From a virus: a stretch of DNA of 30,402 nucleotides. The DNA is taken from positions 1 through 30,402 of the IMG/VR virus record IMGVR_UViG_3300044634_001939. One strand, given 5' to 3'. Below the pieces are notes generated by a model. That model saw only the letters and a list, made by a program, of their open reading frames with translations, searched no databases and was not told where the DNA came from. Shown piece by piece: positions 4,989 through 27,830 of the stretch. The position numbers and the translations under genes were made by a program. Each line of letters starts with the position of its first letter. Positions within the stretch are counted from its first letter, which is position 1.

Positions 4989-5606
4989 TTAGTGGATCCA
5001 GTGCTGAGGAACCATTATCTTTTCACCACTTTTTACTAAGTGAGCAGTGTGATGATATGGTGGTGATGGAGGGAAAACAATAATACTTCCTGCTTTTGGC
5101 TTTACTGCAAATGTATAATTTGTGTCTTTTTCTGCAAGATCAAAATCTGACGGAGGTCTTGCTCCTGTTAATATTCCTCCTGGAGAAGCAATTGTAAAAG
5201 ATATCTCTCCACCTTCGTAGTCATCGTTAAGATACATTACAAAAGAAACCTTAAGTCTTTCATCACCCTCTTGCTGATCAAAGTGTGCGCCCATAAATGT
5301 TCCTGGCTGATACTTCTTAATTGGATACTGAGGAAATAACTTTGGCTCATCTGTAATCCCTTGAGCCTTTGCATAATCTCTTGCAACATCGTCAAATGCT
5401 TTTTCTAAAGTCTTATAGATATAGTCATTTCCCTCTGAAGGAGCAATTGTCTTGTCGGTTCCATACACGTAGTGCTGACCACTACAAGCCATCCACTCTC
5501 CCCACTCATCTTTATTATCATTTTCAATTGCGTCAACAAGTTTCTTTGGGTCTTCAATTACGTTTGTGTAATAATAAACCTTCTCTTCAAGTATTTCTCT
5601 ATCCAT
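4989..5606 (-). CDS. 2OG-Fe(II) oxygenase, prolyl 4-hydroxylase-like (1)
   Basis: 205 aa with the double-stranded beta-helix core of 2-oxoglutarate/Fe(II) dioxygenases of the prolyl 4-hydroxylase type. Iron ligands are H108-F-D110 and H186. The 2OG-binding basic position, ten residues after the last His, is K196 where Arg is usual. Between them lies the signature strand YLNDDYEGGEISF (125-137), then PKAGSIIVFPP. The frame uses an ATG preceded by AAGGAG directly after the stop of the previous oxygenase (11-base gap). It is last in a run of five oxygenases starting at 8559. Expected chemistry is hydroxylation coupled to succinate and CO2 release; the substrate is unknown. Confidence 0.9.
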   Translation of the reverse strand: MDREILEEKVYYYTNVIEDPKKLVDAIENDNKDEWGEWMACSGQHYVYGTDKTIAPSEGNDYIYKTLEKAFDDVARDYAKAQGITDEPKLFPQYPIKKYQPGTFMGAHFDQQEGDERLKVSFVMYLNDDYEGGEISFTIASPGGILTGARPPSDFDLAEKDTNYTFAVKPKAGSIIVFPPSPPYHHTAHLVKSGEKIMVPQHWIH

Positions 5607-5617
5607 AGTATTTCTCC

Positions 5618-6283
5618 TTAGTATTTATTATTTTCATACCAACCTCTAACTTTTATAAATCCAACAGTTACATATCTTATTGGACTATTTTTTCCTACAG
5701 GTCTTACACCATGCTCATATTCTTCTGTTCCTGGAAAAATAAGCAATGTCTTTGGTGCTGGTCTCAAATCAGATTCTGATTTGTTTTCAAAGAATAATGT
5801 TCCATCTTTATAGTCATCATTAATGTACAAGATAGCAGCATATCTTATTGATGGGTCAGTGTGCTGGTCTGTATGAGACTTTAGTTCAACTCCTTCTTGC
5901 ATTCTTTGCAATGTTCCAAACCCAGCAAGTTCTAGAGATGGATCTGAAAGAGCAATTAAATTACCAAGTCTTCTTTGTAGAGTAACAGTGATTGGCTCAT
6001 GAACAATGTTCAGGTTCTTGTCTTGCCATCCTTGAGTAATCTCAAACTTGCCTTCAGCAACCAGATTGTCAACGTCGTCTCTTCCAAATTTTTCCATGCA
6101 GAATCTAGCAAGATTTTTTGTATATTCTATGCCCCAGTCTGCTTCTGTAGCGTTATTGATTATTTGCCAAATTGTTTCTAACTCTTCATCCGATATAAAG
6201 TTTTTAATAGCAAGAACTTGGTCGTGCCAAACCTCTATCTCATAATTAGCATCCACAAATTCTTTCTCTAAGAAAATTTCCAT
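5618..6283 (-). CDS. 2OG-Fe(II) oxygenase, prolyl 4-hydroxylase-like (2)
   Basis: 221 aa from the ATG at 6283. A longer frame begins at 6313 but overlaps the previous gene, whereas the ATG at 6283 sits 7 bases after GGAGA and just past the upstream TAA. Ligands: H137-T-D139, H191 and R203. The core contains YINDDYKDGTLFF and TLLIFPGTEEYEHGV. This copy has a longer loop after the distal His (PVGKNSPIRY). The N-terminal half (residues 20-100) is not shared closely with its neighbours, which suggests a different substrate within the same fold. Soluble, no signal peptide. Confidence 0.88.
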   Translation of the reverse strand: MEIFLEKEFVDANYEIEVWHDQVLAIKNFISDEELETIWQIINNATEADWGIEYTKNLARFCMEKFGRDDVDNLVAEGKFEITQGWQDKNLNIVHEPITVTLQRRLGNLIALSDPSLELAGFGTLQRMQEGVELKSHTDQHTDPSIRYAAILYINDDYKDGTLFFENKSESDLRPAPKTLLIFPGTEEYEHGVRPVGKNSPIRYVTVGFIKVRGWYENNKY

Positions 6284-6284
6284 T

Positions 6285-7028
6285 TTAGTCTCCAACCTTA
6301 TACTTGTTGCCATTTTTATCTAATTTGTATCCTTGTTTTAATAACTCTTGCCATTCTGCTCTTTCAATTTCTTGCTTTGCCCTTGTCTCTTTCATCTCTG
6401 CTGCCCAAGCGTCTCGTACTTCTTGTGGGTAATCAGATTCTTCCCTATCGTCCCAGAAAGATCCTATGGTATATCTTACTCCGCTTTCTATTAAGGAGAC
6501 TTCGTGCATATTATTAAATCCCCCGTCAAAAACAGCAAGCATTCCTACCTGTGGTTTAATCTCTATGCTTTGATCTGGAAACCTAAGAAGCCCACCTTCA
6601 AAATCATCATTAAGATATAAGAATCCAGCGTAGCGACTTCTTGTAAATGCTCCAGAGTTTCCGTGCTCATCCGTGTTATCTGAGTGAATTCTTGCATAGG
6701 CTCCTGGCTCCCACTTTTGTGTGTGATACCCAATCTTAGATATAATCTTTGGATCAAGATCGTGAACTGATGCTATTGCCTCTGGCATCATTTTTTCAAT
6801 GTCTGAAAAGATTGTTGGGATAAGGCCAGCATCTAACACTTCTTGATCGTTGTCTTGTGGAAGGACAGAAGAGTATGACTCATAAAAAGATATTGGCATC
6901 CATGAAATCTTTCCATTGTCTGCTTGTGCATCAAGGGCCTGTATCATTTTTTGACAATCTTCTTTACTTATAAAGTTTTCATAAACAACAATATCTTTTG
7001 TTATTCTTTTTTTATTATTTAAATTCAT
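6285..7028 (-). CDS. 2OG-Fe(II) oxygenase, prolyl 4-hydroxylase-like (3)
   Basis: 247 aa from the ATG at 7028, chosen because it forms an ATGA overlap with the upstream stop and follows AGGAGAGG; the longer frame from 7115 would overlap the previous gene by 91 bases. Ligands: H115-S-D117, H175 and R185, the classical HxD...H...R set. The core includes GFLYLNDDFEGGLLRF and VGMLAVFDGG. A C-terminal extension (about 195-247), rich in Glu, Lys and Arg and probably helical, is absent from the other copies. Function: hydroxylase by family; substrate unknown. Confidence 0.9.
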   Translation of the reverse strand: MNLNNKKRITKDIVVYENFISKEDCQKMIQALDAQADNGKISWMPISFYESYSSVLPQDNDQEVLDAGLIPTIFSDIEKMMPEAIASVHDLDPKIISKIGYHTQKWEPGAYARIHSDNTDEHGNSGAFTRSRYAGFLYLNDDFEGGLLRFPDQSIEIKPQVGMLAVFDGGFNNMHEVSLIESGVRYTIGSFWDDREESDYPQEVRDAWAAEMKETRAKQEIERAEWQELLKQGYKLDKNGNKYKVGD

Positions 7029-7888
7029 TTTATTCTGTTTACCTCTCCTGCACTTTTTCTTGGCGGAATGCCAGCCCAAAAGTTTTTTATAATTTCTGTT
7101 TGCATTTCTTGCCACACTTCTTTTCCAAAATCATTTTCTTTGTCAATCCATTCTTGAGAAGCATCTTCGTACTTCATCCAGTACATTCTGGCAATATACT
7201 TATTTTCTTTTCTTGGAACCATAACCCCGTGTAGGTAAACTTTGCCATCCTTAGTTAGTATGTCTGGGTGACCTGAAGGAAAAACTAAAACGTCTCCAGC
7301 CTCTGGCTTATACATATAAGCATCTTTGCCAACAACAAAATCAATTTCTCCTCCCTCATAATCATCATTAAAGTATGTTAATGCCGTTATTACAAACTTG
7401 TTTCCTGGGCTTTTAATTGGCTCTCTTACATAATCAGAGTGGTAGACCAATCCTATGGAGTCTTCAATGTCTGTTCTATATCTTGCAATTGAAGGCCCAT
7501 TACTAGTCCAAAGTTTACGAGTTGCACCATCGTGATCTTTTACTAATGCTTCCTCATCAAACTCAACATTATGTTTGGCTATATAATCTTTTGTTGCTAA
7601 ATGAAAATTTTTAAAAACTTCTAAAATTGCAAGTTTTTGTTCTTCTTGTTTTGGGCTTGCAGTTTCTACTTCTTTTTCTATGTAATCCATAGTCATCGTG
7701 TGTGGATGATCTTTAAATAAAGGATTAATGTATTGACCAAAAGAAGCCCACTGGGTCCATGGACTAAACAAGCCTTCTTCGTCTTCTTCTTTTAACAAAG
7801 ATGTTGTTTTAGATATATCTTTAAAAAGATTTTTATATACAAATATATTTGGATATATCTCAATATGCTCTACAGGCTGTGTTGTCAT
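7025..7888 (-). CDS. 2OG-Fe(II) oxygenase, prolyl 4-hydroxylase-like (4)
   Basis: 287 aa from the ATG at 7888, which overlaps the upstream stop as ATGA and has AGGAGA nine bases before it; the longer frame from 7924 lacks such support. Ligands: H150-S-D152 and H220, with K230 (or R234) at the 2OG-binding position. Core strands: ALTYFNDDYEGGEIDF and AGDVLVFPSGHPD. It is the longest oxygenase here, with a helical segment at about 65-115 and a 50-residue C-terminal tail after the core. It is second in the five-gene oxygenase operon. Confidence 0.88.
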   Translation of the reverse strand: MTTQPVEHIEIYPNIFVYKNLFKDISKTTSLLKEEDEEGLFSPWTQWASFGQYINPLFKDHPHTMTMDYIEKEVETASPKQEEQKLAILEVFKNFHLATKDYIAKHNVEFDEEALVKDHDGATRKLWTSNGPSIARYRTDIEDSIGLVYHSDYVREPIKSPGNKFVITALTYFNDDYEGGEIDFVVGKDAYMYKPEAGDVLVFPSGHPDILTKDGKVYLHGVMVPRKENKYIARMYWMKYEDASQEWIDKENDFGKEVWQEMQTEIIKNFWAGIPPRKSAGEVNRIK

Positions 7889-8559
7889 GGTTGTCTTTCT
7901 CCTGTGTGCTTTGTTATCTCCCAAAAGAAAGGACAGGTGTATCTAATACCACTTTTAATTTCTGTTACTCCGTGAATATAATTTTTATCCCCTGGGAAAA
8001 AATATGCTGCACCCTTTTTAGGCTTAAACTGAATTCCTTGTAATGGGAAATATAGTTCTCCACCTTCATAGTCTTCATTTAAATAAAACAGACTTGAAAG
8101 ATCGTAGTTTGGAAAATCATTTGGAAGACCTGCATCTGGTCCTTCATGAAGTTCTTTATCTGCATGCGGATTTTGCAACTGTCCTGGTAGCCATCTAACA
8201 ATTGTAGGTCCTGTAGGTATAACTTCTACCTTGTAAAAATCTTCAACAATCGGCTTTAGTCTTTCAAATAGTCCTGCAACAACTGGGGCTATTTCTGGAT
8301 TGTTTTTATTTAAAGTAGGATATGTTGCTACTCTGTCTTTCCAATAATTAGAATCATAAACAACAGTTCCATTTTCATTAACGTGGCTTTCTGTTACATC
8401 CCAAATTGTTAAAGACTTTGCAGCCTTTTCTAAAAAGTCCATCTCTTCTTGAGTCATAAAATTTTCTAACTCAACAATCATATCTTTGCTATTGCCAAAC
8501 CACCCAGAAGGTGTCATAGAAGGCTTTCTAACAACAACAGATGCTTCTGATTTATCCAT
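7885..8559 (-). CDS. 2OG-Fe(II) oxygenase, prolyl 4-hydroxylase-like (5)
   Basis: 224 aa. Ligands: H132-A-D134, H196 and R206, a complete HxD...H...R set. Core: LFYLNEDYEGGELYF, PKKGAAYFFPGD and YIHGVTEIKSGIRY. There is no Shine-Dalgarno sequence before the ATG at 8559; instead TGA-TATAAT ends exactly six bases upstream, so the message should be leaderless. A 7-bp palindrome adjoins that promoter. It heads an operon of five oxygenases running to 4989, with ATGA overlaps or gaps of at most 11 bases. Confidence 0.9.
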   Translation of the reverse strand: MDKSEASVVVRKPSMTPSGWFGNSKDMIVELENFMTQEEMDFLEKAAKSLTIWDVTESHVNENGTVVYDSNYWKDRVATYPTLNKNNPEIAPVVAGLFERLKPIVEDFYKVEVIPTGPTIVRWLPGQLQNPHADKELHEGPDAGLPNDFPNYDLSSLFYLNEDYEGGELYFPLQGIQFKPKKGAAYFFPGDKNYIHGVTEIKSGIRYTCPFFWEITKHTGERQP

Positions 8560-8565
8560 AATTTG

Positions 8566-8574
8566 ATTATATCA
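8566..8574 (-). promoter_or_regulatory. Leaderless promoter of the five-oxygenase operon
   Basis: TGA-TATAAT on the minus strand, six bases from the ATG at 8559. With normal -10 spacing, transcription starts on the A of the start codon. Confidence 0.7.
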
Positions 8575-8591
8575 TAGGGTTTATACCCTAT
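8574..8591. promoter_or_regulatory. Palindrome abutting the oxygenase-operon promoter
   Basis: ATAGGGT-TTAT-ACCCTAT, a perfect 7-bp inverted repeat with a 4-base centre. It ends three bases from the -10 hexamer and covers the stop codon of the upstream gene. This is the spacer/-35 position, as expected for a repressor or activator site; it could also form an RNA hairpin at the 3' end of the upstream message. Confidence 0.4.
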
Positions 8592-9043
8592 AATTCCCTC
8601 TCAATCTCTAGTTGTTTTAAAAACCTTTCTGGATTGAATCTCCAGTTATCTTTTGCAAAAGAAGTGACAATTTTAATGCAGACATTCTCATAGTCTTCCT
8701 TGTCTAACTTATCCTTCAAAGAGTGCAATGCTTCAACTGTATCTATATAGTTTTGCCTTACAAATGATGGATCTCCTGCGTGGTTTCTTTTTAAAACCTT
8801 TGTATTTATTTTTCCAGATGGCTCATACATAGATACAGTTAAATAGTCTTTTGCAAAGCCAGCATCTTGATACATTTCATATCCTTCGTTAGCCTGCTTT
8901 TCATTATCAAAAGATATTATTGATCTAACTGGAGACTCTCCATCTCTTGAGACTGTAATTATATAATGACTAATTTTTCCATCTTTTGCATTTTGAATAT
9001 AGTTATTTACCATATCATCATGGTTTGGCCTTGTGTCGTTCAT
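8588..9043 (-). CDS. Unknown protein, 151 aa
   Basis: Not recognised. The start ATG overlaps the upstream stop (ATGA), so it is probably translationally coupled. The N-terminal half has a small alpha/beta look with a HYIITVSRDGESPVRSIISF hairpin; the C-terminal half is charged and helical (about 95-151, many Lys/Glu/Asp). No cysteines or signal peptide were seen. It is last in the operon that begins at 11919 and lies between two oxygenase blocks, so a role in the same process is possible but unsupported by motif. Confidence 0.75.
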   Translation of the reverse strand: MNDTRPNHDDMVNNYIQNAKDGKISHYIITVSRDGESPVRSIISFDNEKQANEGYEMYQDAGFAKDYLTVSMYEPSGKINTKVLKRNHAGDPSFVRQNYIDTVEALHSLKDKLDKEDYENVCIKIVTSFAKDNWRFNPERFLKQLEIEREL

Positions 9044-9753
9044 TGTGCACCAGTATTATCATTAACGTAAAGTTTTAATGTTTTTGTTTCATGCTGTCCT
9101 CGTGTTTTTCCATTTTCATCAACAGCATCTCTATACCAATCAGTCCATTGCCCAGAAGAGTTTAGCACTTGTGCTGCTTCTCCATAGGCAATATTGGACT
9201 CTGTTCTAGACCTGTCTTCATCTTTATAATTAACAATTTCTATAGCACTATTATTTAAATTAGTCAAAGATATTGGAATGATTGTTGCTAATGGCGTTCC
9301 AGCCTTTATTGTTACTTCTTTATTTGCTGATTTTGCCTTAATCGCTAAAGGAAGCGGATTATCAAAAAAGGAAGTGCTAATTAGATTTGACATTGTCTCA
9401 AAATCTTCATTAAAATAGTTTACTGGATTTATGCTAAGTATGCTTACTTCTTGTTCAGTTTTAAAAACTAACCCAGTGTTAAGGCTAAGAGAAGATTGCC
9501 CTCTTCCAGTATAAGACCCTTCTGGTGCAGAAACAATCTTAATGTGGTCTTGTGTTTGGTCATTTATCCCATCCCAGATAAAAGAAATATCCTCTAAGCA
9601 TGAAAGACTCCATCCAATAACATTTGCTTGTGTTACAGGAAAACATCTATATGCATGATTTTCTGATGTAGCATCCATCCAATCTCTTTTGATAGACATG
9701 GGAGAAATTACAAAAGAGTTGCCAGGCATCTTCTCAACTGAGATGTTGATCAC
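9040..9753 (-). CDS. Beta-rich phage protein, distant relative of the 255-aa neighbour (DUF6065-like)
   Basis: 237 aa, starting with GTG inside a TAGTG stop/start overlap with the upstream oxygenase. Visible blocks are YRCFPVTQANVIGWSLSC (N-terminal third), a TGLVFKTEQEVSIL strand, a NPVNYFNEDF segment and VTIKAGTPLATIIPI. The last two line up with TPMNRFDLPF and GTIPAGTPYLQVLPF in the protein at 10445-11212, so the two are probably divergent paralogues. The pattern recalls the cupin-like DUF6065 family; I hold that name loosely. Each paralogue directly follows a closely related oxygenase, which suggests a functional pair. Biochemical role unknown. Confidence 0.7.
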   Translation of the reverse strand: MINISVEKMPGNSFVISPMSIKRDWMDATSENHAYRCFPVTQANVIGWSLSCLEDISFIWDGINDQTQDHIKIVSAPEGSYTGRGQSSLSLNTGLVFKTEQEVSILSINPVNYFNEDFETMSNLISTSFFDNPLPLAIKAKSANKEVTIKAGTPLATIIPISLTNLNNSAIEIVNYKDEDRSRTESNIAYGEAAQVLNSSGQWTDWYRDAVDENGKTRGQHETKTLKLYVNDNTGAQ

Positions 9754-10436
9754 TATTCTTTATCCCACTTTGGGTCATACATATCTGGTGTATGGTACTT
9801 CTTGCTGTAGTCAAGCATAGTAACAATTGAATACTTTGTTCCAGAGTGTACTGGCATTGCTTGATGAGGATACATGAAGTTTGATGGGAAAATGTAAAGA
9901 TCTCCAGCCTTTGGCTTGATATTCAGACCTTGCAGTCTAAAATACAACTCTCCACCCTCATAGTCATCATTAACATATGCAACAAGTGAGACCGTGCAAT
10001 TGTATGAGTATCCGTGATCGTGGTGTTCTTTAAAGTGTTGACCTGGACCATACTTAATAAAATTAAAGGCTTCCCAATATTTTAATGGCATAATATTGTA
10101 ATCTCTTCTGTAATCTTCTACAGCAGCAGCCTGTGCGTCATATATATCTTGCCATAAAGATTGTAGTTTTAGCGACTCTTCGCTTTTGTCTAATTCTATG
10201 TCACTTTTCTTAAATTTAAAATCTACGCAGTCTCTATAGTCTGGCATCAATTGTTGATATCCTACGTATGCTGGCATCCAATGGTATCTTTTGCCTTCTG
10301 CTGATAATTCTCCATACCCAGCAACAGAGCCAAGAGCATTTTCAAGTCTGTTTATTACATCAAACTCGTTTTTTATAACGTTTCTGTAACACACAATTCC
10401 ATTTCCAAGAATTTCTTTTTCTGTCCAAGTTTGCAT
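9753..10436 (-). CDS. 2OG-Fe(II) oxygenase, prolyl 4-hydroxylase-like (6)
   Basis: 227 aa. Ligands: H138-H-D140, H191 and K201 (Lys replaces the usual Arg). Core: SLVAYVNDDYEGGELYF, KPKAGDLYIFPSNFMYPH. It closely resembles the oxygenase at 11212-11919, sharing YxEAFNFxKY before the HxD motif, YNCTVS after it and PSNxxYxH at the distal His. AGGAAA seven bases before the ATG fixes the start, 8 bases after the upstream stop. It is followed directly by the GTG-started beta-rich protein. Confidence 0.9.
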   Translation of the reverse strand: MQTWTEKEILGNGIVCYRNVIKNEFDVINRLENALGSVAGYGELSAEGKRYHWMPAYVGYQQLMPDYRDCVDFKFKKSDIELDKSEESLKLQSLWQDIYDAQAAAVEDYRRDYNIMPLKYWEAFNFIKYGPGQHFKEHHDHGYSYNCTVSLVAYVNDDYEGGELYFRLQGLNIKPKAGDLYIFPSNFMYPHQAMPVHSGTKYSIVTMLDYSKKYHTPDMYDPKWDKE

Positions 10437-10444
10437 TTTGTTTC

Positions 10445-11212
10445 CTATCTATACTCTCGTCTTGACCATACTTTATTTTTATATACCCCGCCATCTGGTT
10501 GACGGTAAAAGTTTGCGTTATCTACCATTTTACCATACATATCAGATTGACTTAAAATTTCTATTTCGTGTTCCCAGTTTTCTCTTTTAAATGGCAGCAC
10601 CTGAAGATATGGAGTTCCTGCTGGGATTGTTCCTTCCCATCCATCTGCAATAAAAAATGGAAAACTTCCAAGAAGATGCACCTTGTCGCTGTCAACAATT
10701 CCAGTAGTGTTCATAAATGGAAGATCAAATCTGTTCATTGGTGTCATAAACAGAGCACTATAACCTTCTGGCAACTCTAGCCCCCAGTCAGAACTCCAAG
10801 CAAAATGATGTGTATAAAATCCTTTTGGATGTTCAAACTGTGGCATTGGTGGTCTCTGGGTGCAAAAGTCTTTATACTTAGGATCAGCGACTGTTACATT
10901 AATTACTCCGTAAGAATTTTTGGCAAATGTTAGATCGCATGGGGTTTTAAACACATACCCTGTTGAAAAAGCATCCATGATTGCTGGGCAGGCTTTCCAG
11001 GTTGGAATCTTTCCGTAATCATCTGTTGTTCCTTCTTTAGGAAATGGACAAACCTCTTTTGGGGCCTTGTAGTATTCTCCATTTGGCATTTTTGCAAATC
11101 TGTCTGCATCCTTATACCAATCTGGAATTTCTTTTTGTGTTGGAACAGGAACAGAAACGCTATCTTTATTTAGCCATGGTCTGAATGATCGGAAAATAGC
11201 AACAAGAGACAC
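10445..11212 (-). CDS. Beta-rich phage protein (DUF6065-like), paralogue of the 237-aa protein
   Basis: 255 aa, starting with GTG in a TAGTG overlap with the upstream oxygenase. The N-terminus is IFRSFRPWLNKDSV, then a Pro/Lys-rich stretch with IPDWYKDADRF and a PTWKACPAIMDAF block. The rest is beta-rich: TGYVFKTPCDLTF, WGLELPEGYSALFMTPMNRF, and GWEGTIPAGTPYLQVLPF. The strand order suggests a cupin/jelly-roll-like fold. It is similar in order, not in detail, to the protein at 9040-9753. I cannot assign a reaction; a role beside the oxygenases is inferred only from repeated adjacency. Confidence 0.72.
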   Translation of the reverse strand: MSLVAIFRSFRPWLNKDSVSVPVPTQKEIPDWYKDADRFAKMPNGEYYKAPKEVCPFPKEGTTDDYGKIPTWKACPAIMDAFSTGYVFKTPCDLTFAKNSYGVINVTVADPKYKDFCTQRPPMPQFEHPKGFYTHHFAWSSDWGLELPEGYSALFMTPMNRFDLPFMNTTGIVDSDKVHLLGSFPFFIADGWEGTIPAGTPYLQVLPFKRENWEHEIEILSQSDMYGKMVDNANFYRQPDGGVYKNKVWSRREYR

Positions 11213-11919
11213 TACTTGTGTCCCAGTTCATTAATGTCTGTCATTACGACAACACAATATTTTGCTCCCTCTTTCATTGGTAAGGATGCATGCTCATAGA
11301 TATAGTTAGATGGGCAAATTAATATATCTCCTACCTTTGGAGTATGAGTATATCCGTCAAGTCGTGGGAACCTAATTTCTCCACCTTCATAGTCTTCATT
11401 TATATATATTACTGCGGATACAGTGCAGTTGTACATTGGACCGTGATCTGCATGAATATTAAAGTGAGTTCCTTCTCCTTCGTATTTTACAAAGTTAAAT
11501 GCTTCATAGTATACAACATTTATTCCCCAGTACCTGGCATAGTCATCAACACAAAACTTTAACTTTTGATAGATCTCTTCATGCAAGTCAATAAGTTCGG
11601 CATTATGCTCATCTCTTGGTCCCAAGTTTTCTTGCTTAAATCTAAAGTCTACAGCGTCTCTAGCCTTCTTAATTGGCACATCTGAATTAGTTACTTTTGC
11701 CTCTGACCATTTGTATTTGCCATTTCCACCCAAATTAGACTCTAATGTTTTTATATATCTTTCGGAATCTTCTTTTGAAAACACATTTCTGTACAGATTA
11801 ATTCCTAATGCTGGATTTTCAACCAGTATGTTATTCCCAATAGTTTTTGATGGATACCTATTTAAGGCTGTTTCAGACCTATCTTTTGTAAACCACACAT
11901 TGTTATTTTCATCATACAT
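11212..11919 (-). CDS. 2OG-Fe(II) oxygenase, prolyl 4-hydroxylase-like (7)
   Basis: 235 aa. Ligands: H156-A-D158, H210 and K220. Core: SAVIYINEDYEGGEIRF, KVGDILICPSNYIYEH. It has an extra N-terminal stretch (about 1-40) compared with its close relative at 9753-10436. Start: AAGGG seven bases before the ATG. It heads the tightly overlapping block oxygenase/beta-protein/oxygenase/beta-protein/unknown that runs to 8588. Hydroxylase by family; substrate unknown. Confidence 0.9.
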   Translation of the reverse strand: MYDENNNVWFTKDRSETALNRYPSKTIGNNILVENPALGINLYRNVFSKEDSERYIKTLESNLGGNGKYKWSEAKVTNSDVPIKKARDAVDFRFKQENLGPRDEHNAELIDLHEEIYQKLKFCVDDYARYWGINVVYYEAFNFVKYEGEGTHFNIHADHGPMYNCTVSAVIYINEDYEGGEIRFPRLDGYTHTPKVGDILICPSNYIYEHASLPMKEGAKYCVVVMTDINELGHK

Positions 11920-12474: not shown

Positions 12475-13437
12475 TTAACAAGTACAATTTGAGCAAGAGC
12501 ATAGCCAGCAATAGTTAGCGAAGCATCCTCCAACTCCAACTCCAACTCCAACACCTACTCCAACACCTACTCCAACGAAGAATGGTGGGAAGAATGGGAA
12601 GAATGGAAAGAACGGGAAGTAAGGTGGGAAGAATGGGAAGAATGGGAAGAATGGGAAGAATGGTGGGAAGAATGGAAAGAATGGAAAGAACGGGAAGAAC
12701 GGTGGGAAGAATGGGAAGAACGGGAAGTAAGGGAAAAATGGTGGGAAGAATGGGAAGAATGGGAAGAATGGGAAGAATGGGAAAAACGGCGGGAAGAATG
12801 GAGGAGTGGTAACGCTATTAGATGGATTAGAATAGTCTCCAAACCCATTACCATTTTCTGCCCGTACCTGATAGGTCTGTGCAGTTGTTGCTTCTTGTGC
12901 TACTGAAGAAGATAAAGATGCTGATGTTCCAGTTTTAGCATCAGATGAAGTATATCTGTAAAGAGTAATTGGCTTTCCACCAGTTGCTGGTGCTGACCAA
13001 GTAATTGTATCGTTTTGTGACCCTGCTGTAACTGATGCAGTTACTGTTCCAACCTTGTTTGGTACTGATGTAACAGTAAGCGCATCAGTAGCAGTTGATG
13101 CTGCTGATGTTCCAGAAGCATTTGTTGCAGTTACAGTAAATGTATAAGATGCTGCAGACTTAAGTCCACCTATAACAATTGGGGATGATGCTCCTGCCTG
13201 AGTTACAGTAGTTCCAGTTGAACCATCTCCTCCTGCACCTGTTGCAACAAATGTTGCAGATACTGTGTAAGAAGTTGCTGGTGGAGAACCTGCTGGCAAT
13301 TCAAAAGTAACTGATGCTGCTGCACTATTAAATGGTCTATTTGTACCAACGTCAGTTCTGCCAACATTGATTGGTGGCTTTGGCTCCAAGAAGTCATTTG
13401 CTGCTTGGGACTTTTTTCCTACTTTTTTATTTGCCAT
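12475..13437 (-). CDS. Fibronectin-III protein with Phe-Phe-Pro repeats, Val-Gly run and Cys-rich tail
   Basis: 320 aa. After a Lys-rich start (MANKKVGKKSQAANDF), residues about 37-210 form two fibronectin type III-like domains (SYTFTVTATNASGTSAAS; TYQVRAENGNGFGDYSNPS). Residues 210-287 are built almost wholly of [11 protein letters not shown] units with a few Tyr. Residues 288-303 are alternating Val-Gly, and the last 16 residues, from CFANYCWLCSCSNCTC, hold six cysteines. No signal peptide. AAAGGGG nine bases before the ATG supports the start. It follows the 824-aa fibre gene. A tail-tip or adhesive role is inferred; the repeat tract is extreme and unlike common fibre repeats. A similar FFP block ends the 669-aa fibre. 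Confidence 0.85.
   Translation of the reverse strand: MANKKVGKKSQAANDFLEPKPPINVGRTDVGTNRPFNSAAASVTFELPAGSPPATSYTVSATFVATGAGGDGSTGTTVTQAGASSPIVIGGLKSAASYTFTVTATNASGTSAASTATDALTVTSVPNKVGTVTASVTAGSQNDTITWSAPATGGKPITLYRYTSSDAKTGTSASLSSSVAQEATTAQTYQVRAENGNGFGDYSNPSNSVTTPPFFPPFFPFFPFFPFFPFFPPFFPYFPFFPFFPPFFPFFPFFPFFPPFFPFFPFFPFFPPYFPFFPFFPFFPPFFVGVGVGVGVGVGVGVGGCFANYCWLCSCSNCTC
12531..12576 (-). repeat. CCAACT/CCTACT repeat encoding Val-Gly
   Basis: Tandem six-base units (CAACTC/CACCTA variants on the plus strand) encode an alternating Val-Gly run. The period keeps the frame, so unit gain or loss would change length without frameshift. Confidence 0.8.
12577..12809 (-). repeat. GGGAAGAATG-type repeat encoding Phe-Phe-Pro units
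   Basis: About 230 bases of near-repeats of GGGAAGAAT and GGTGGGAAGAA on the plus strand encode PFF and PPFF units on the minus strand. Small substitutions give occasional Tyr. All units are multiples of three. Confidence 0.85.
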
Positions 13438-13466: not shown

Positions 13467-15941
13467 TTACTTTAGGTCTCCGAAGAGAACCCATGTGTTT
13501 GCTGCTCTCTTAAAGAGAGTTGCAGATGACCAAGTTGTACGAAGTGTTGATCCTGGAGTAGAGTTTAATGTTACTCCTGCGGATGCTGCAATTGCAACTG
13601 GTCCTGTACTTGTTTGAAGAACATCAATAGAAGTTCCGATTGGGAAGTTTAGTGTTGAATCTGCAGGAATTGTAACATTTACTGCTGAAGTACCACTATG
13701 TGCAACTTCGATTAAAGAGTCTCTTTCTGTAAGTGATGAAAGTGTGTACGCTGCTGTTTTTTGGATAATAGGAGTTCTCGAAGGAGTTCCTTCTTTTGTC
13801 TGTGTACCATCTGTAAACGCTACTCCTGCTGCTGCAACTGTTACTGTTCCAGTAAATGTTGGAGAAGCAATTGGGGCTTTTAGGTCAAGTGCTGTCTGTG
13901 TGGCAGTTGAAATTGGCTTGTTAGTATCTGTTGTATTATCAACATTACCAAGACCAACCATAGTTTTTGTTATACCAGATACTGTTCCAGTAAATGTTGG
14001 AGAATTAAGTCCTGCAATTGCAGAATAGGTTGTTCCATCATTTGTGAACTCCCAAGAATCAGTAGACTCATTCCAACGAAGTTGAACATCAGATGAGTCT
14101 CCACGCTTAATCTTTATTCCTGCATTCTCTGTTGGAGTACCAGTAGTAAAGTTGCTGTTTAGGTCGATAATGTTATCAGCCAATGAGATTGTTTCGCTGT
14201 TTACAGTTGTAGTTGTTCCGCTTACTGTTAGGTTTCCACCAACAACAAGGTTTCCATTTACTTCTGCATTATCATTAAGATAAACTTTTCCTGTACCGTT
14301 TCCAGATAGAGATAGGTCTGTATTTAGAGTATTGCTTGATACAGAATCAGCCTTTATTCCATTGCTAAATGCAATTCCGTTTCCATCATTGCTTGAGAAG
14401 TTGGCTCCTGCTTCAACAACTAAAGGTCCCTTTATGTTAACAGAACCAGCACCTGTTGGATCTAGTTCAATGTTACCACTTCCGCTTGTTCTTAATGCCA
14501 AGTTTTCATTAGCATCTGCAGTGATAACAACGTCACCTGCGTCAGTTTGAAGAACCTTTTGTCCGTTAACGTACAAGGATCCTGGACCAACATAAATATC
14601 TCTCCACATCTTTGTAGGAGAGCCCAAGTCAAATGTAATATCTGTTGCTGGTAGTACATGTCCTGTGGTGACAGTACCTGTAAATGTTGGTGAAGCAAGT
14701 GGTGACTTTAGGTCAAGCGCTGTTTGTGTAGCAGTTGAAACTGGCTTATTAGCGTCTGAAGTATTGTCAACATTTCCAAGACCTACTGAAGACTTTGTAA
14801 GTGCTGCTACTGCAGTTGAAATCTTTGTGTCTGCTGCTGTTCCTGCTGCTGTAATTGCGTCTGCTTCTGCTTGATCAGCATATGCTGTAGTTGCAATTGT
14901 TGCATCAATATCAAATCTTAACTCTGCTGCATTCCAATCAATTCCTGTTCCTGCAAGTGCTGATTGATCTACTGACGCTTCATCAAGTGCGTCTTCAAGA
15001 TCTGAGACTGTCACAAGAAGTGAAGTATCTGCAATTCCGTGTACGCTTGTTGTTGCATCAGCGTGTAGTCCAAGTGCTGTAGAAGCCGCTGAATTTGCTG
15101 CTACAATATCTGCTGCTGTAGCAAGTTCTGCAGTATCTGCAATTCCATGTACGTTTGTTGTAAGATCATTGTGTGCTTCAATTGCGTCTGTTAGTGCTTC
15201 TGCAAGACCAGCATCTGTTACAAGAAGAGAAGTGTCTGCAATTCCGTGTACATTTTCTGTAGAACTGTTGTGATCACTTAGATTTGTTAGTGATGCTTTT
15301 AGTGCAAGAGTGTTTGTTAATTCTGAAGCAAAGTTTTCATTATTTCCTAGTGCTGCTGCTAACTCGTCTAATGTATCTAGCAGTCCTGGTGCGCCATTTA
15401 CTAAATTGTTTACCTTTGTCTGAACAAATTCTGTTGTTGCAATTTGTGTTGTATTTGTTAGTGAAGATGCTGTTGGTGCTGTTGGAACACCAGTTAATGA
15501 TGGTGATGCTAATGGTGCCTTAAGATCAAGGGCTTCTTGTGCTGCTGTTGATACTGGCTTATTAGCATCTGTTGTATTATCAACATTGCCAAGACCGACC
15601 ATTGACTTTGTAACTCCGCCAACTGTTCCTGTAAATGTAGGATTGTTGATTGGAGCCTTTAGTGCAAGATTGTTTGCTGTTGTTGTAAAGAACGCTGGAT
15701 CATCTCCAAGGGCTGCTGCTAACTCGTTTAATGTGTCCATAGTTCCTGGAGCACTATCAATAATTGCTGCTAGTTCTGCTGCGTTAGCAAAGTACTGTAG
15801 GGCAGACCATGTTGATGATCCGTTACCCATCTTAAACTTACTTGTATCAGTTTCAAAACCGATTTCACCTGCTGCTAGAATTGGGTTTGCAGCCGTCCAT
15901 TGTGCTGCAGTACCTCTGCGCTGTTGCATTCTTGTTGCCAT
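13467..15941 (-). CDS. Long tail fibre, 824 aa
   Basis: The N-terminus (RRGTAAQWTAANPILAAGE) is the attachment-type module found at the start of many phage fibres (Mtd N-terminal-like). Then come repeats: MVGLGNVDNTTDANKPVST-type units recur four times, VHGIADTSLLVT-type units at least three times, and LLDTLDELAAALG units twice. A central segment (FDLGSPTKMWRDIYVG, then GNLTVSGTTTTVNSETISL) is common in phage structural proteins. The last 100 residues form a beta-sandwich ending NTWVLFGDLK, also found in the 669-aa fibre. AAGGAG lies ten bases before the ATG. It most likely binds the host surface or connects to a tip protein; the small fibronectin/FFP protein downstream is a candidate partner. 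Confidence 0.92.
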   Translation of the reverse strand: MATRMQQRRGTAAQWTAANPILAAGEIGFETDTSKFKMGNGSSTWSALQYFANAAELAAIIDSAPGTMDTLNELAAALGDDPAFFTTTANNLALKAPINNPTFTGTVGGVTKSMVGLGNVDNTTDANKPVSTAAQEALDLKAPLASPSLTGVPTAPTASSLTNTTQIATTEFVQTKVNNLVNGAPGLLDTLDELAAALGNNENFASELTNTLALKASLTNLSDHNSSTENVHGIADTSLLVTDAGLAEALTDAIEAHNDLTTNVHGIADTAELATAADIVAANSAASTALGLHADATTSVHGIADTSLLVTVSDLEDALDEASVDQSALAGTGIDWNAAELRFDIDATIATTAYADQAEADAITAAGTAADTKISTAVAALTKSSVGLGNVDNTSDANKPVSTATQTALDLKSPLASPTFTGTVTTGHVLPATDITFDLGSPTKMWRDIYVGPGSLYVNGQKVLQTDAGDVVITADANENLALRTSGSGNIELDPTGAGSVNIKGPLVVEAGANFSSNDGNGIAFSNGIKADSVSSNTLNTDLSLSGNGTGKVYLNDNAEVNGNLVVGGNLTVSGTTTTVNSETISLADNIIDLNSNFTTGTPTENAGIKIKRGDSSDVQLRWNESTDSWEFTNDGTTYSAIAGLNSPTFTGTVSGITKTMVGLGNVDNTTDTNKPISTATQTALDLKAPIASPTFTGTVTVAAAGVAFTDGTQTKEGTPSRTPIIQKTAAYTLSSLTERDSLIEVAHSGTSAVNVTIPADSTLNFPIGTSIDVLQTSTGPVAIAASAGVTLNSTPGSTLRTTWSSATLFKRAANTWVLFGDLK

Positions 15942-20272: not shown

Positions 20273-20869
20273 TCATCGTAGCCAACTGACTACAGAGTAT
20301 CTTATTCCCTCTGTTACTGGAATGACTGAGTGGTTATATACATAGTTTGATGGAAATATTAAAAACTCGTTTGCTACTGGCTTGTAGGTTATGTCAAATC
20401 TTGGAAATGTAATTTCTCCACCAGAGTAGTTATCGTTTAAATAATAGACAGTAGAGATTCTTCTATGGTACTTATGGTTATCATCTATATGGTTAACTAC
20501 CTTTTGTCCTGGACCATACTTTAAAATACCATAAGAATCGTGCCATTCTGTGCCTATATTATATTCTTTTTTGTAGTCTAACTCTAAATCTTTAAATCCC
20601 AACAAAAAAGTGTTTGATAGTTTTGCTTTAAATTCATAGTACTCATGCATGGTATTGTTAACAATATGATCTTGATACTCAATATACAAAGAATCGGTAT
20701 CTCTTATAGTCTTTTCTGGAACATCTTGTCCGTTTATTATTGCCGTTGCTGGATACCAGGCATCAAAGTTTTTAGATACGCCCTTTTCAATTTCATCTAT
20801 AAGAGACTCATGATCATCTATTACGTCTGAATATATTACAATTCCTGGTGCTAGTGTTCTTTTTTTCAT
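20273..20869 (-). CDS. 2OG-Fe(II) oxygenase, prolyl 4-hydroxylase-like (8)
   Basis: 198 aa from the ATG at 20869, which sits in a TAATG overlap with the zinc-ribbon gene and follows AGGAAA; the longer frame from 20944 would run through the upstream gene. Ligands: H127-I-D129, H180 and R190. Core: STVYYLNDNYSGGEITF, FLIFPSNYVYNHSVIPV. Its approach to the HxD motif (GILKYGPGQ) is close to the 227- and 235-aa oxygenases. It is last in the operon WDG protein, zinc ribbon, oxygenase. Confidence 0.9.
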   Translation of the reverse strand: MKKRTLAPGIVIYSDVIDDHESLIDEIEKGVSKNFDAWYPATAIINGQDVPEKTIRDTDSLYIEYQDHIVNNTMHEYYEFKAKLSNTFLLGFKDLELDYKKEYNIGTEWHDSYGILKYGPGQKVVNHIDDNHKYHRRISTVYYLNDNYSGGEITFPRFDITYKPVANEFLIFPSNYVYNHSVIPVTEGIRYSVVSWLR

Positions 20870-21096
20870 TACCATTTTCCTAACGGGCAAGTTGCCTTTT
20901 CTAGTTTTGACTTTAAACTCATTATACACCCACATTTTTTGCACTGATTTGTTGTTTTAATAAATTCTGGACATACATGACAAATAGAAAGCCTTTGAAT
21001 AGATATGCTCTCGTCTTGTACATATTGGTTTGGATCCAGTAAATGCCATGGCCTTGTTTCTCCTAAAGACGACTTCCACTCTTCCCACTTTGACAT
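20869..21096 (-). CDS. Six-cysteine zinc-ribbon-like small protein (1)
   Basis: 75 aa. Cysteines at 39, 42, 52, 55, 57 and 70 form CHVC...QCKKCGC...TCPLGKW, a zinc-ribbon-like knuckle pair ending in GKW at the C-terminus. The N-terminal 35 residues are polar with WHLLDPNQY. The same Cys pattern and end occur in the 81-aa protein at 25543-25788 (DUF6171-like by appearance, name not certain). In both places the next gene is a 2OG-Fe(II) oxygenase, here joined by TAATG. A metal-binding partner or specificity factor is a reasonable inference. Confidence 0.8.
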   Translation of the reverse strand: MSKWEEWKSSLGETRPWHLLDPNQYVQDESISIQRLSICHVCPEFIKTTNQCKKCGCIMSLKSKLEKATCPLGKW

Positions 21097-23288: not shown

Positions 23289-23926
23289 CACAATTGTCTC
23301 CTTTTAATTAGTGTCTCTTTCTTTATAAAAAGAGCGTCCCCCCACATTGTACTTCCAATAATAACATACACTGGATAAAAGCCAAAAGGTGCTAAAAATT
23401 CTGACAGGTCGTTAATGCTGCAGTCATTCTTATAAAGACCACCTAGGGCAACCTCAAGCCATAAAGCATCTGCATCTTTGAAAGTCTCAATGCCACCAGA
23501 CAAGACTTTTAGTTCAGCACCCTGGACATCCATTACAACTAGATCAAACTTTCCTAGAGATAATGAGTCCAAAGTTTTTGTTTTTATTTTTATAGGCTGA
23601 GAATCAAATTTAACATCTGGATGCTCTGTCAAATGTAATCCTGGCTCCAATAGGCTAGAACTCATCTTATCATTGCTCGATACCCAAAAATCTACCTCAA
23701 CATCCTGAGTATCTGAAACTAAAGCCTCTATTGCTTTCCAGTTTGGTTCACAAACAAGATACTCTTCCAATCTTTTGTATACTGTTGGGTCTGCTTCAAT
23801 AAAAATTCCACTAGTTATTCCGATATCTTTGTACATTGACAGTTCCTGACCAATATGTGCTCCAACATGAATAACACTTTTTGGTTTTAGCCCATGTATT
23901 CCTAAAACTTGCGCTATATTGTACAT
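23288..23926 (-). CDS. FkbM-family SAM-dependent methyltransferase
   Basis: 212 aa from the ATG at 23926, preceded by GGGAGGAG; the longer frame from 23956 has less support. It overlaps the glycosyltransferase gene by 13 bases. Visible FkbM features: SVIHVGAHIGQE (SAM-binding loop, 17-28), FIEADP (42-47), SSSLLEP, KTLDSL and DLVVMDVQGAELKVLSGG (128-145). FkbM enzymes O-methylate small molecules and sugars. Next to an epimerase and a glycosyltransferase, O-methylation of a transferred sugar is the simplest inference. Confidence 0.9.
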   Translation of the reverse strand: MYNIAQVLGIHGLKPKSVIHVGAHIGQELSMYKDIGITSGIFIEADPTVYKRLEEYLVCEPNWKAIEALVSDTQDVEVDFWVSSNDKMSSSLLEPGLHLTEHPDVKFDSQPIKIKTKTLDSLSLGKFDLVVMDVQGAELKVLSGGIETFKDADALWLEVALGGLYKNDCSINDLSEFLAPFGFYPVYVIIGSTMWGDALFIKKETLIKRRQL

Positions 23927-24957
23927 AGCCTTGACTCCTCCCACTCTCTCCACCATTGTTTTGTAAAACTATCTTTATTACTGTATCCATTCCAAGAGTA
24001 TGGACCGCTCTGCAAATGCTCTTCTTCCCCGAATATTCTCCATTGTATATCTCTTTTTTGATTTAAACCTCTGTGAATATATCCAGTATATGTGCTTCCT
24101 GGGCTTCCGATAAACTCTTGGCTGTAGTGCATTACAAGGTTATTTAAGATTCCAAAAGAAACTTCTTCCTTAAACTTAAACTCTCTAAACTCTTTGTGAA
24201 AGTTGTTTAGTATGTATTCATCTAGCAATAGATAGTTGTAAGAAGAGTTTTTTATTAGTTCACTGTCTGGCTGGTCTGTGCACATTACAATTGGCAAACC
24301 ATTATCTATTTTGCTTATTCCAGAATCTAAAATATTGCTATCTGGATCAAACATTCCCTTGTGATCTGTTAATCTAAAATGTGAGCCATTAAAAACTCCA
24401 ATAGAGTTTGCTATTTTTTCTGCTAACTGATAATATTCTGGCTTAAATCGTACAGAGGATAGACTCTTATCTAAATCTTTATCACGATCAAAAAAGAATC
24501 TGCTGTAATATCCTAATGTTTTTTTTAAATGAATGTTTTCATAATTATCTAAAAATAGTCTTTTCCTACCTTCTGCAAAATCATGCTCTTCATCTTTATA
24601 TGTATCTGATGGTGCAGAATAGTGCAACATTAAATTTTCAATTCTTAAATCTTCATGCGTAAAAGTTTCTACTGTGTCGTTTATAAAAATATTACACTCT
24701 TTATTTTCCCAATCTATCAAATCTGTAATATTAGGGAAAATATTAGAATCAATCAAATGGCTTCTTTCGTTAAATTTATAATTTGCAGAATATATTGGAA
24801 CTCTAGCACCGTTATAGTCTCCATTTGGAGGGTTACTTATATTATGAAATACCAACTGTTTTTTATATCTACTAGATAAACCAACTGCAATCTCTATACT
24901 TGTTATCTGATTAAACAAACCGCATGGTTGATAAAGTTGATAAAATATACTTCCCAT
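23914..24957 (-). CDS. Fucosyltransferase-like glycosyltransferase
   Basis: 347 aa. PCGLFNQITSIEIAVGLSSR (11-30) is the entry typical of fucosyltransferase-type GT-B enzymes. HFRLTD (193-198) fits the conserved HxR motif that contacts the GDP-sugar phosphates, followed by IVMCTDQPDSELIK and EFIGSPGSTYTGYIHRG (281-297), the second donor-site motif. Starts two bases after the upstream stop. No membrane segment. The next two genes are a methyltransferase and a GDP-mannose 3,5-epimerase, so a GDP-L-galactose-type donor is likely, since L-galactose is 6-hydroxy-L-fucose. Family is fairly clear; donor and acceptor are inference. Confidence 0.75.
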   Translation of the reverse strand: MGSIFYQLYQPCGLFNQITSIEIAVGLSSRYKKQLVFHNISNPPNGDYNGARVPIYSANYKFNERSHLIDSNIFPNITDLIDWENKECNIFINDTVETFTHEDLRIENLMLHYSAPSDTYKDEEHDFAEGRKRLFLDNYENIHLKKTLGYYSRFFFDRDKDLDKSLSSVRFKPEYYQLAEKIANSIGVFNGSHFRLTDHKGMFDPDSNILDSGISKIDNGLPIVMCTDQPDSELIKNSSYNYLLLDEYILNNFHKEFREFKFKEEVSFGILNNLVMHYSQEFIGSPGSTYTGYIHRGLNQKRDIQWRIFGEEEHLQSGPYSWNGYSNKDSFTKQWWREWEESRLCTI

Positions 24958-25820: not shown

Positions 25821-27830
25821 CTACTGGCCACCCTCAATTGTAAAATATGGGAAATATGGAGCAAGTGGATCATATACTGGTGTTGGTGCAGTTGGCGCGG
25901 TTGGCGTAACAGGTGCTACTGGAGCAAAATATGGGAAGTATGGGAAGAACGGGAAGAACGGTGGGAAGAATGGAAAGAACGGGAAGTAAGGGAAGAATGG
26001 TGGGAAGAATGGGAAAAACGGTGGTGCTGTTGGAGCAACAGGTGCTACGGGAGTTGGTGTTGGAGAGTCAATGCACTGTCCTCCAGACCAAGTATAGTTA
26101 CATGCTGCACACTGTGTCTGGTTTAAAGAACCAGCATTAGAACAATCAAGTGCTACTGGGGCAACTGGTGCTACGGGAGTTGGCGTAGGTGCTACGGGGG
26201 TTGGTGTTGGAGCAACTGGAGTTGGAGTTGGTGCTACGGGAGTTGGAGTTGGTGCTACGGGAGTTGGCGTAGGTGCTACGGGGGTTGGTGTTGGAGCAAC
26301 TGGAGTTGGAGTTGGTGCAACAGGTGTTGGTGTTGGGGTGTCGCCTCCCCCTCCGCTAAAAGGGCTTGGCGAGTCTATGCATTGACCACCTGACCAGGTG
26401 TAGTTACATTCTGCACATTGTGTTTCGTTTAGTGAACCAGCATTAGAACAATCAAGTGCTACAGGGGCGACAGGGGCGACAGGTGTTGGAGCGGTAGGTG
26501 TAACGGGAGCAACAGGTGTTGTTGGTGTAACAGGTGCTACGGGAGTAGGTGTAGGTGTAGGTGCTACTGGTGCTGGAGAGTCAATACATTGGCCTCCAGA
26601 CCAGGTGTAGTTACATTCTGCACATTGTGTTTCGTTTAGTGAACCAGCATTAGAACAATCAAGTGCTACAGGTGCAACTGGTGCAACTGGTGCTACGGGA
26701 GTTGGAGTTGGTGCTACTGGTGAAGGATTATCGTAACACTGTCCTCCAGACCATGTGTAGTTACATGCTGCACATTGTGTCTGGTTTAAAGAACCAGCAT
26801 TAGAACAATCAAGTGCTACTGGGGCAACTGGTGCAACAGGTGTTGGTTCGGTAGGTGTAACGGGAGCAACAGGTGTTGGTTCGGTAGGTGTAACGGGAGC
26901 AACAGGTGTTGGTTCGGTAGGTGTAACGGGAGCAACAGGTGTTGGTGTGGTAGGTGTTGGTGTAGGTTCTACTGGTGTTGGTGTTGGCGCAGTTGGTGTT
27001 ACTGGAGCAGTTGGTGTAGGAATTGGTGCTACTGGAGTTGGAGCAACTGGAGTAGGTGTAGGAGCAACAGGTGTTGGTGCTACGGGAGTTGGAGTTGGAG
27101 CAATTGGTGTAGGAGTAGAGGCTCCTTCATATATATCGCCATAAGCAATCCAAGAATTTTCTGCAATTTTTATAAGTGTAACTTGTCCGTATTGTGTATC
27201 AATAAAAAGTTGTGCATTTTTGCTATTAATAGTTACACCTGATCCTGGAACAAACGTTGTTATTCCTGATCCTATTTCAATTAAATGATACTTATATCCA
27301 ACTGGAATTGCTACTGCAGAATTTGTGGGAATAGTCAAATTCATTGTAGACGAAGTATTAAGAAGAATGGTTTTGCTAACATCACCTAACTCCAAGGTAA
27401 AACCAGATGTTTTTGTTATAACAGTGTTAGTATTTGCAATTCTTGGCTCTACATCAAACCTTGTGTCTACAGAATTCCAACCAAGCCCTGTTCCAGCAAG
27501 ATCGGGATATCCTCCAGTTGATGTTTCTATTGCGTTTGTAACATATGCTGTTGTTGCTAAAAGTGATGTATCGTCTATCCCGTGAACATTTTGTGTTAGG
27601 GCAGCGTGTGTAGAATCTGCATTGGCTAAACTTTTAAGGTGTCCTGCTACTGATTTTGTATTTATACCGTTTGGTGTTCCAAGATTGTTGTCTGTTGGGA
27701 TTATTGTTGATCCATAGTGATAAAGTCTTAAGGCTTCCTGAATATCTGCTGCATCTTCATAACCAGGTATCTTGGTTGGGTATAACCCAGAGCCATTTTC
27801 TGTATCATCAATAAATTCAGCAGCCATCAC
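25821..27830 (-). CDS. Fibre with Pro/Thr repeats, four cysteine modules and Phe-Phe-Pro tip
   Basis: 669 aa starting at GTG (27830); the ATG at 27827 is an equal choice, with GGTGAT upstream. Residues 1-120 carry a [16 protein letters not shown] unit like the 824-aa fibre. About 120-235 is a beta-sandwich ([18 protein letters not shown] ... [12 protein letters not shown]) like the end of that fibre. From 239 on come long (A/V)PTPTPVAP repeats, interrupted by four about 30-residue modules, [20 protein letters not shown]-type, each with four Cys. Residues 602-635 are FFP/FFPP units, then [11 protein letters not shown] and a Tyr/Phe end. It is probably a virion adhesin or fibre; the proline-rich parts are candidate substrates for the oxygenases. 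Confidence 0.88.
25926..26027 (-). repeat. Second GGGAAGAATG-type repeat encoding Phe-Phe-Pro units
   Basis: The same near-repeat as at 12577-12809, shorter, with TATGGGAAGTAT variants giving Tyr. Two distant genes share this unusual tract. Confidence 0.8.
26066..26816 (-). repeat. Four cysteine-module DNA repeats
   Basis: Four about 90-base near-identical copies at about 26066-26153, 26371-26459, 26578-26666 and 26726-26816 encode [18 protein letters not shown] modules ending SGGQC. Copies 1 and 4 share NQTQCAAC; copies 2 and 3 share NETQCAEC. Linkers between them vary in length. Confidence 0.85.
26817..27116 (-). repeat. Tandem repeats encoding Ala/Val/Thr-Pro linkers
   Basis: About 300 bases of units such as GGTGTTGGTTCGGTAGGTG and GGAGCAACAGGTGTTGG (plus strand) encode the [11 protein letters not shown] and APTPTPVAP linkers. 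Further similar tracts lie between the cysteine modules. Some adjacent copies are identical, which suggests recent expansion or contraction. Confidence 0.8.

What the first reader, a model, noticed from the sequence alone, without database searches (positions are those of the whole stretch)
26066..26816. Four near-identical cysteine modules in a Pro/Thr-rich fibre
Each module (DCSN...[15 protein letters not shown]) has four Cys at fixed positions and is separated by PTPVAP linkers of different lengths, like stapled beads on a rigid string. Copies form two sequence types (NQT/AAC and NET/AEC) in the order A-B-B-A, hinting at recent conversion. The NxT sequences are also curious.
Basis: partly seen in the sequence, partly recalled or inferred. 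Interest (0 to 1): 0.65.

Follow-up and report, generated by a model that had tools for sequence, protein, structure and literature searches.

The report
Phage fibre with swappable disulfide beads
A virus of lake-type actinobacteria appears to carry a fibre built like a necklace, with small disulfide-stapled protein beads on proline/threonine strings, and related viruses carry the same virion-anchoring end with different, swappable beads, which suggests an undescribed way for viruses to vary how they hold on to bacteria.

Summary
One gene, 25821-27827 (-), carries four modules with four Cys each, separated by Pro/Thr/Val/Ala linkers of 24, 43 and 76 aa; all 16 Cys lie in the modules. The order A-B-B-A is real, and flank mosaicism supports exchange between copies. 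It was not recent: same-type copies differ at about 26% of synonymous sites. The larger result lies outside the window. The Cys-free N-terminus (239 aa) defines a family with at least 413 relatives among viral contigs and none detected in bacterial genomes or annotated phages. In this family the N-terminus is constant, while the C-terminal string carries many classes of Cys bead, with linkers uniform within a fibre but different between fibres. Of 235 distinct bead segments, 234 hold an even number of Cys, strong sequence evidence for disulfide pairing inside beads. Beads are shared at 88-100% DNA identity between fibres with 51-75% identical N-termini, so they move as cassettes. WhiB genes point to actinobacterial hosts. 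Best reading: a tail-associated adhesion fibre with exchangeable disulfide-stapled, probably glycan-binding beads. Binding is inferred, not shown. The NxT sequences mark a helix N-cap, not a conserved glycosylation site.

The parts
25821..27827 (-). gene of the bead-string fibre (668 aa from ATG; 669 aa if the upstream GTG is used)
27114..27827 (-). constant N-terminal region (about 239 aa, no Cys): family-defining; residues about 121-233 match the C-terminal domain of Gordonia phage minor tail proteins and PHROG 8780 (minor tail protein)
26811..27113 (-). first Pro/Thr/Val/Ala linker (about 100 aa)
26727..26810 (-). bead M1, type A ([28 protein letters not shown])
26661..26726 (-). linker M1-M2
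26577..26660 (-). bead M2, type B (NET/AEC)
26454..26576 (-). linker M2-M3; its part next to M3 resembles the linker before M1
26370..26453 (-). bead M3, type B
26148..26369 (-). linker M3-M4 with 8 units TPTPVAP (9 in contig L005)
26064..26147 (-). bead M4, type A
25926..26021 (-). [13 protein letters not shown] tract, shared with gene 12475-13437 (92% over 91 nt)
25824..25925 (-). C-terminal tail ending [13 protein letters not shown]

Best explanation
The gene encodes a virion fibre, most likely tail-attached, of an actinophage. The Cys-free N-terminus anchors it to the virion. The rest is an extended polyproline-type string carrying small beads, each closed by internal disulfides; in the 4-Cys bead probably C1-C3 and C2-C4, around a short helix and a beta-hairpin with an exposed aromatic. 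The beads act as several weak, interchangeable binding sites for host-surface glycans or cell wall, so the fibre adheres by avidity. The lineage changes what it binds by exchanging bead cassettes and changing linker lengths, while the rest of the genome changes slowly. Shown by sequence: architecture, Cys pairing rule, cassette exchange, linker length change, conserved anchor. Inferred: tail location, extended string, disulfide topology, glycan or wall binding, avidity.
For: Constant N-terminus with different C-terminal strings in 413 viral relatives, none in 84,980 bacterial/archaeal species genomes at this sensitivity. Even Cys count in 234/235 distinct segments and 57/58 whole strings; N-terminus Cys-free in 61/63. 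Half-beads lose the first and third Cys together. Predicted helix plus hairpin, core pLDDT 86. dN/dS 0.02-0.06 between bead types. Bead DNA 88-100% identical between fibres with N-termini 51-75% identical, across different linker types; L082 and L094 have much the same bead series in different linkers. Fibre changes against a ribonucleotide reductase 98-100% identical in six of the long contigs. A PASTA domain, a cell-wall-binding type, takes a bead place in one relative (E 1.4e-10) and a weak TSP_1 match in another. The N-terminal part resembles minor tail proteins; neighbours are tail-fibre and collagen-like genes. WhiB in 6 of 8 long contigs. All new 4-Cys bead hits lie in this fibre type or in fragments with the same kind of string.
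Against: No binding, disulfide or virion-location data. The bead model has modest confidence and no structural match. The N-terminal model failed (pLDDT 42). These proteins are presumably made in a reducing cytoplasm, and no dedicated oxidase was found (thioredoxin in 1 of 9 contigs; the Evr1 search had no positive control). Beads could be spacers or cross-linkers rather than binders. Other genes of these phages also vary, so variability is not unique to the fibre.
Confidence: 0.6

Rival explanations
1. The beads are structural: disulfides form between chains and lace a trimeric fibre together, as Cys-rich domains do in minicollagens, and binding is done by another part or protein.
For: Phage Milano has extensive inter-chain disulfides in its tail (PMC10811340). 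Even Cys numbers per bead do not by themselves exclude pairing between chains. The bead has no match to a known binding domain over threshold.
Against: An even Cys count in nearly every single bead and coupled loss of two Cys in half-beads are what pairing within a bead predicts. Bead diversity and exchange are hard to explain for a pure lacing role.
Confidence: 0.15
2. The four Cys bind a metal (zinc-knuckle or rubredoxin-like, CxxCG) and the beads fold in the reducing cytoplasm without disulfides.
For: The CxxCG[YL]xW motif gives sub-threshold hits to rubredoxin-type models (best Pfam E 0.0088; PDB E 0.42).
Against: Only one CxxC per bead; half-beads keep just two Cys; other beads in the same strings have 2, 6 or 8 Cys in patterns unlike zinc sites, yet nearly all even.
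Confidence: 0.07
3. The string is the functional part: a mucin-like, hydroxylated and glycosylated coat made by phage oxygenases and sugar enzymes, with the beads as passive spacers or caps.
For: Linkers are 33% Thr and 30% Pro. The window has seven PF13640 2OG oxygenases, the one tested having bacterial prolyl 4-hydroxylases as its best solved relatives (E 0.002), plus a sugar epimerase/dehydratase and an FkbM methyltransferase nearby.
Against: Oxygenase number varies from 1 to 9 in relatives that all have strings. Beads are under purifying selection and are exchanged. No substrate is known.
Confidence: 0.12

Closest known systems
Modular tail-fibre and receptor-binding proteins of tailed phages
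   Same: Conserved N-terminal anchor, variable C-terminus exchanged between phages; residues 121-233 are similar to Gordonia phage minor tail proteins.
   Different: The variable part is a string of many small disulfide beads on Pro/Thr linkers, not one trimeric receptor-binding head; bead cassettes move singly and linker type changes independently.
Agrobacterium phage Milano disulfide network (PMC10811340)
   Same: Precedent for many disulfides in a phage tail, including the short tail fibre.
   Different: Milano cross-links sheath, baseplate and fibre subunits of a contractile tail; here Cys are confined to repeated beads and a Pro/Thr string is present.
Peritrophin-A/CBM14 and other small Cys-rich carbohydrate-binding modules on Pro/Thr linkers (from own knowledge)
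   Same: Small bead, hairpin CxxGxxWxxxxGxC with aromatics, Pro/Thr linkers; one of 19 beads hits CBM_14 at E 0.0085.
   Different: Below the Pfam cut-off, four Cys in 24-28 aa, no structural match to CBM14 in the PDB. Works-like only.
Actinophage DSL-LC01 (OQ999401, metagenome-assembled; PMC10611076) and Ca. Planktophila phages E7/F5 (PMC10202952)
   Same: Predicted or proven freshwater actinobacterial hosts, WhiB; DSL-LC01 shares RNR at 61% and a similar tail domain.
   Different: DSL-LC01 has no bead-string protein found here; E7/F5 are 39 kb phages of another group.

Membership tests
Tailed-phage tail fibre / minor tail protein | Sequence similarity to annotated tail proteins | tested here: met
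   Residues 133-233: PHROG 8780 minor tail protein E 2.6e-13; Gordonia minor tail proteins 36-40% identity over 121-233
Tailed-phage tail fibre / minor tail protein | Gene lies among tail-fibre genes | tested here: met
   Neighbours match tail-fibre and collagen-like tail PHROGs
Tailed-phage tail fibre / minor tail protein | Trimeric fold and presence in virions | not testable with these tools
   Single-chain prediction gave pLDDT 42; no virion proteomics
CBM14 / Peritrophin-A | Score over the Pfam gathering threshold | tested here: not met
   1 of 19 beads matches at E 0.0085; the window's own beads do not match
CBM14 / Peritrophin-A | Six Cys and the CBM14 fold | tested here: not met
   Four Cys; no PDB structural match
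Zinc ribbon / rubredoxin | Two CxxC knuckles | tested here: not met
   One CxxC per bead
Disulfide-stapled microdomain (a kind, not a family) | Cys in pairs within each module | tested here: met
   234 of 235 segments even; paired loss in half-beads
Disulfide-stapled microdomain (a kind, not a family) | Disulfides formed in the mature particle | not testable with these tools
   Needs mass spectrometry

The most novel reading that the evidence does not exclude
These actinophages run a combinatorial adhesin: a shared pool of many disulfide bead cassettes, moved one at a time between phages into strings whose linkers are kept uniform by a separate process, processed by phage prolyl hydroxylases and, in some members, by a C-terminal Hint (intein-like) domain, so that host binding evolves bead by bead.
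Probability: 0.3. Interest if true: 0.87.

Novelty: new variant of a known kind. Interest (0 to 1): 0.72.

Why it matters
Freshwater actinobacteria are among the most abundant lake bacteria and how their phages bind them is poorly known. A fibre family with one fixed anchor and a pool of small, foldable, exchangeable beads gives a direct handle: each bead is a 25-60 aa domain that can be expressed and tested for binding. It would also be a case of an animal-matrix-like layout (disulfide modules, mucin-like linkers, a PASTA domain, TSP1-like and Hint-like domains) in phage virions, and a natural system to study how repeat linkers homogenise while the domains between them are swapped.

Tried and rejected
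N-glycosylation reading of NxT: rejected as a conserved feature (15 of 36 beads). Recent gene conversion: rejected as recent (pS 0.26), kept as older exchange. Pfam, NCBIfam, PDB and Foldseek searches for the bead: nothing over threshold. INPHARED search with the beads: no significant match (E 0.9 at best for the window's bead; none at 0.01 for the others). Bacterial genomes scan with the anchor: none confirmed. N-terminal AlphaFold model: uninformative. T4-type portal search to place the phage: no hits, no positive control. First Cys parity count with a loose linker rule split beads at Ser/Gly loops (56 odd of 274); four stricter linker rules gave one odd segment each. Literature: 10 full-text searches in an open-access subset found no description of this architecture; subscription papers were not searchable.

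Full report
CHECK. The gene is on the minus strand, 25821-27827. Its four modules DCSNAGSLN[QE]TQCA[AE][10 protein letters not shown] lie at 26727-26810, 26577-26660, 26370-26453 and 26064-26147, order A-B-B-A in the protein, and they hold all 16 cysteines. Linkers of 24, 43 and 76 residues separate them. Same-type copies differ at 4 of 75 nt, different types at 8-12, nearly all synonymous: 6-10 synonymous changes over 15.7 sites against 2 nonsynonymous over 59.3 (dN/dS 0.02-0.06). The near identity is therefore held by selection.

CONVERSION. Upstream linkers add a second marker. M1 and M3 share theirs (37 of 42 nt; the 99th percentile of random in-frame linker pairs in this gene is 35), while M1 and M4 share the core type and the 18 nt just before it. 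Core and flank disagree, so sequence was exchanged between copies. It was not recent, since same-type copies differ at about a quarter of synonymous sites. Contig L005, 99.6% identical over 10.4 kb, has nine instead of eight TPTPVAP units between M3 and M4; this 21-nt gap is the only one reported in that alignment, and bead number is unchanged.

FAMILY. The N-terminal 239 residues find 413 viral contigs (80 kept) but no confirmed hit in genomes of 84,980 bacterial and archaeal species. In 63 distinct fibres the N-terminus stays alignable (mean column identity 63% in 15 representatives) while the rest is a string of beads on linkers of Thr, Pro, Ala and Val. Linker dialects ([21 protein letters not shown]) are largely uniform within a fibre and differ between fibres: mean Jensen-Shannon distance of tripeptides 0.31 within, 0.74 between. 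C-termini end in FFP tracts, Cys-rich caps or, in 12 of 58 complete fibres, a Hint-like domain. The 4-Cys bead recurs in about 24 of the 63 fibres as C-x(8-12)-C-x2-C-[GN]-x2-[WYF]-x(3-7)-[GN][EQ]C; an independent DNA-pattern scan found it only in this fibre family or in fragments with the same kind of string.

DISULFIDES. After removing Hint-like domains, 234 of 235 distinct inter-linker segments contain an even number of Cys, as do 57 of 58 whole strings, and 61 of 63 N-termini contain none. Beads are related to each other, so these are not 235 independent trials, but many classes (2, 4, 6, 8 Cys) obey the rule. Half-beads (SQCPPGYTWYPNFGEC and similar) lack C1 and C3 together, which suggests C1-C3 and C2-C4 bonds. 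AlphaFold gives the 38-residue bead a core pLDDT of 86 with a helix at 15-20 and a hairpin at 24-31. The Asn of the curious NxT is residue 14, just before the helix; across 36 beads the position is N, P, T, S or G, as expected for an N-cap and not for a glycosylation site.

EXCHANGE. Beads with 88-100% nucleotide identity occur in fibres whose N-termini are only 51-75% identical in protein: a 4-Cys bead of L006 is 98% identical over 101 nt to that of L081 and L092 (N-termini 69-70%), and another bead is 100% identical over 141 nt in L088 and L095. The same bead sits in different linker dialects. L082 and L094 share much the same bead series in PTPVA and PTPT strings. Of seven long contigs with a ribonucleotide reductase match, six are 98-100% identical to the window (one of them over a partial match) and one 86%, while the fibre gene of the six contigs compared aligns over only 14-36% of its length at 37-81%. 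Other tail and accessory genes vary as well, so the fibre is one of several variable loci.

HOST AND CONTEXT. Six of eight long contigs carry WhiB, found in actinobacteria and their phages (PMC10202952, PMC10611076). The nearest annotated RNR outside the family is that of actinophage DSL-LC01 (61%), in which no bead string was found. A freshwater habitat is inferred from these links, not from sample data. The window also holds seven 2OG oxygenases; the one tested has bacterial prolyl 4-hydroxylases as its closest solved relatives, weakly (E 0.002). Hydroxylation of the linkers is an attractive guess with no direct support.

FUNCTION. A tail-type domain in the N-terminal half, tail-fibre neighbours, bead exchange, a PASTA domain in one bead place (E 1.4e-10) and conserved aromatics favour adhesion to the host surface. 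Whether the beads bind anything is unproven; the alternatives are lacing, metal binding or spacing in a mucin-like coat.

NOVELTY. Exchangeable fibre tips are a known kind of thing, and disulfide-rich tails have a precedent in phage Milano (PMC10811340). A string of exchangeable disulfide microdomains on dialect-uniform linkers was not found in Pfam, NCBIfam, PDB, INPHARED or the searched open-access literature.

Noticed in passing
L043:5455-5940, L023:2574-3071 and 10 other relatives: C-terminal Hint (intein-like) domains on some fibres, in part with a Cys nucleophile and terminal HN; weak Pfam Hint_2 (8e-4) and bacterial intein-like (PDB 2lwy, E 0.057) matches; an Erwinia phage tail fibre has a 28% identical domain. 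Possible self-cleavage of fibres.
   Followed up: partly
window 12475-13437 (-): Second protein with FN3 domains, a PFF tract 92% identical at DNA level over 91 nt to that of the finding gene, a VGVGVG linker and a 6-Cys cap GCFANYCWLCSCSNCTC like the caps of fibre relatives.
   Followed up: partly
window 4989-11919 and 20273-20944 (-): Seven PF13640 2OG-Fe(II) oxygenase genes in 30 kb, one to nine in relatives; the one searched has bacterial prolyl 4-hydroxylases as nearest solved relatives.
   Followed up: partly
window 23914-24957 (-): 347-aa protein without any significant Pfam, PHROG, NCBIfam or PDB match, next to an FkbM methyltransferase and a sugar epimerase; present in G003 at 84%.
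   Followed up: partly
L082 and L094: Much the same bead series in different linker dialects: linkers change wholesale while beads stay; no mechanism known.
   Followed up: partly
L023, L088, L090: Beads resembling thrombospondin type 1 repeats (GSWSAWSACSGG...), Pfam TSP_1 E 0.036 in L023.
   Followed up: no
window 13467-15941 (-): Tail protein with an Mtd_N domain (major tropism determinant N-terminus, E 1e-13); no reverse transcriptase looked for.
   Followed up: no
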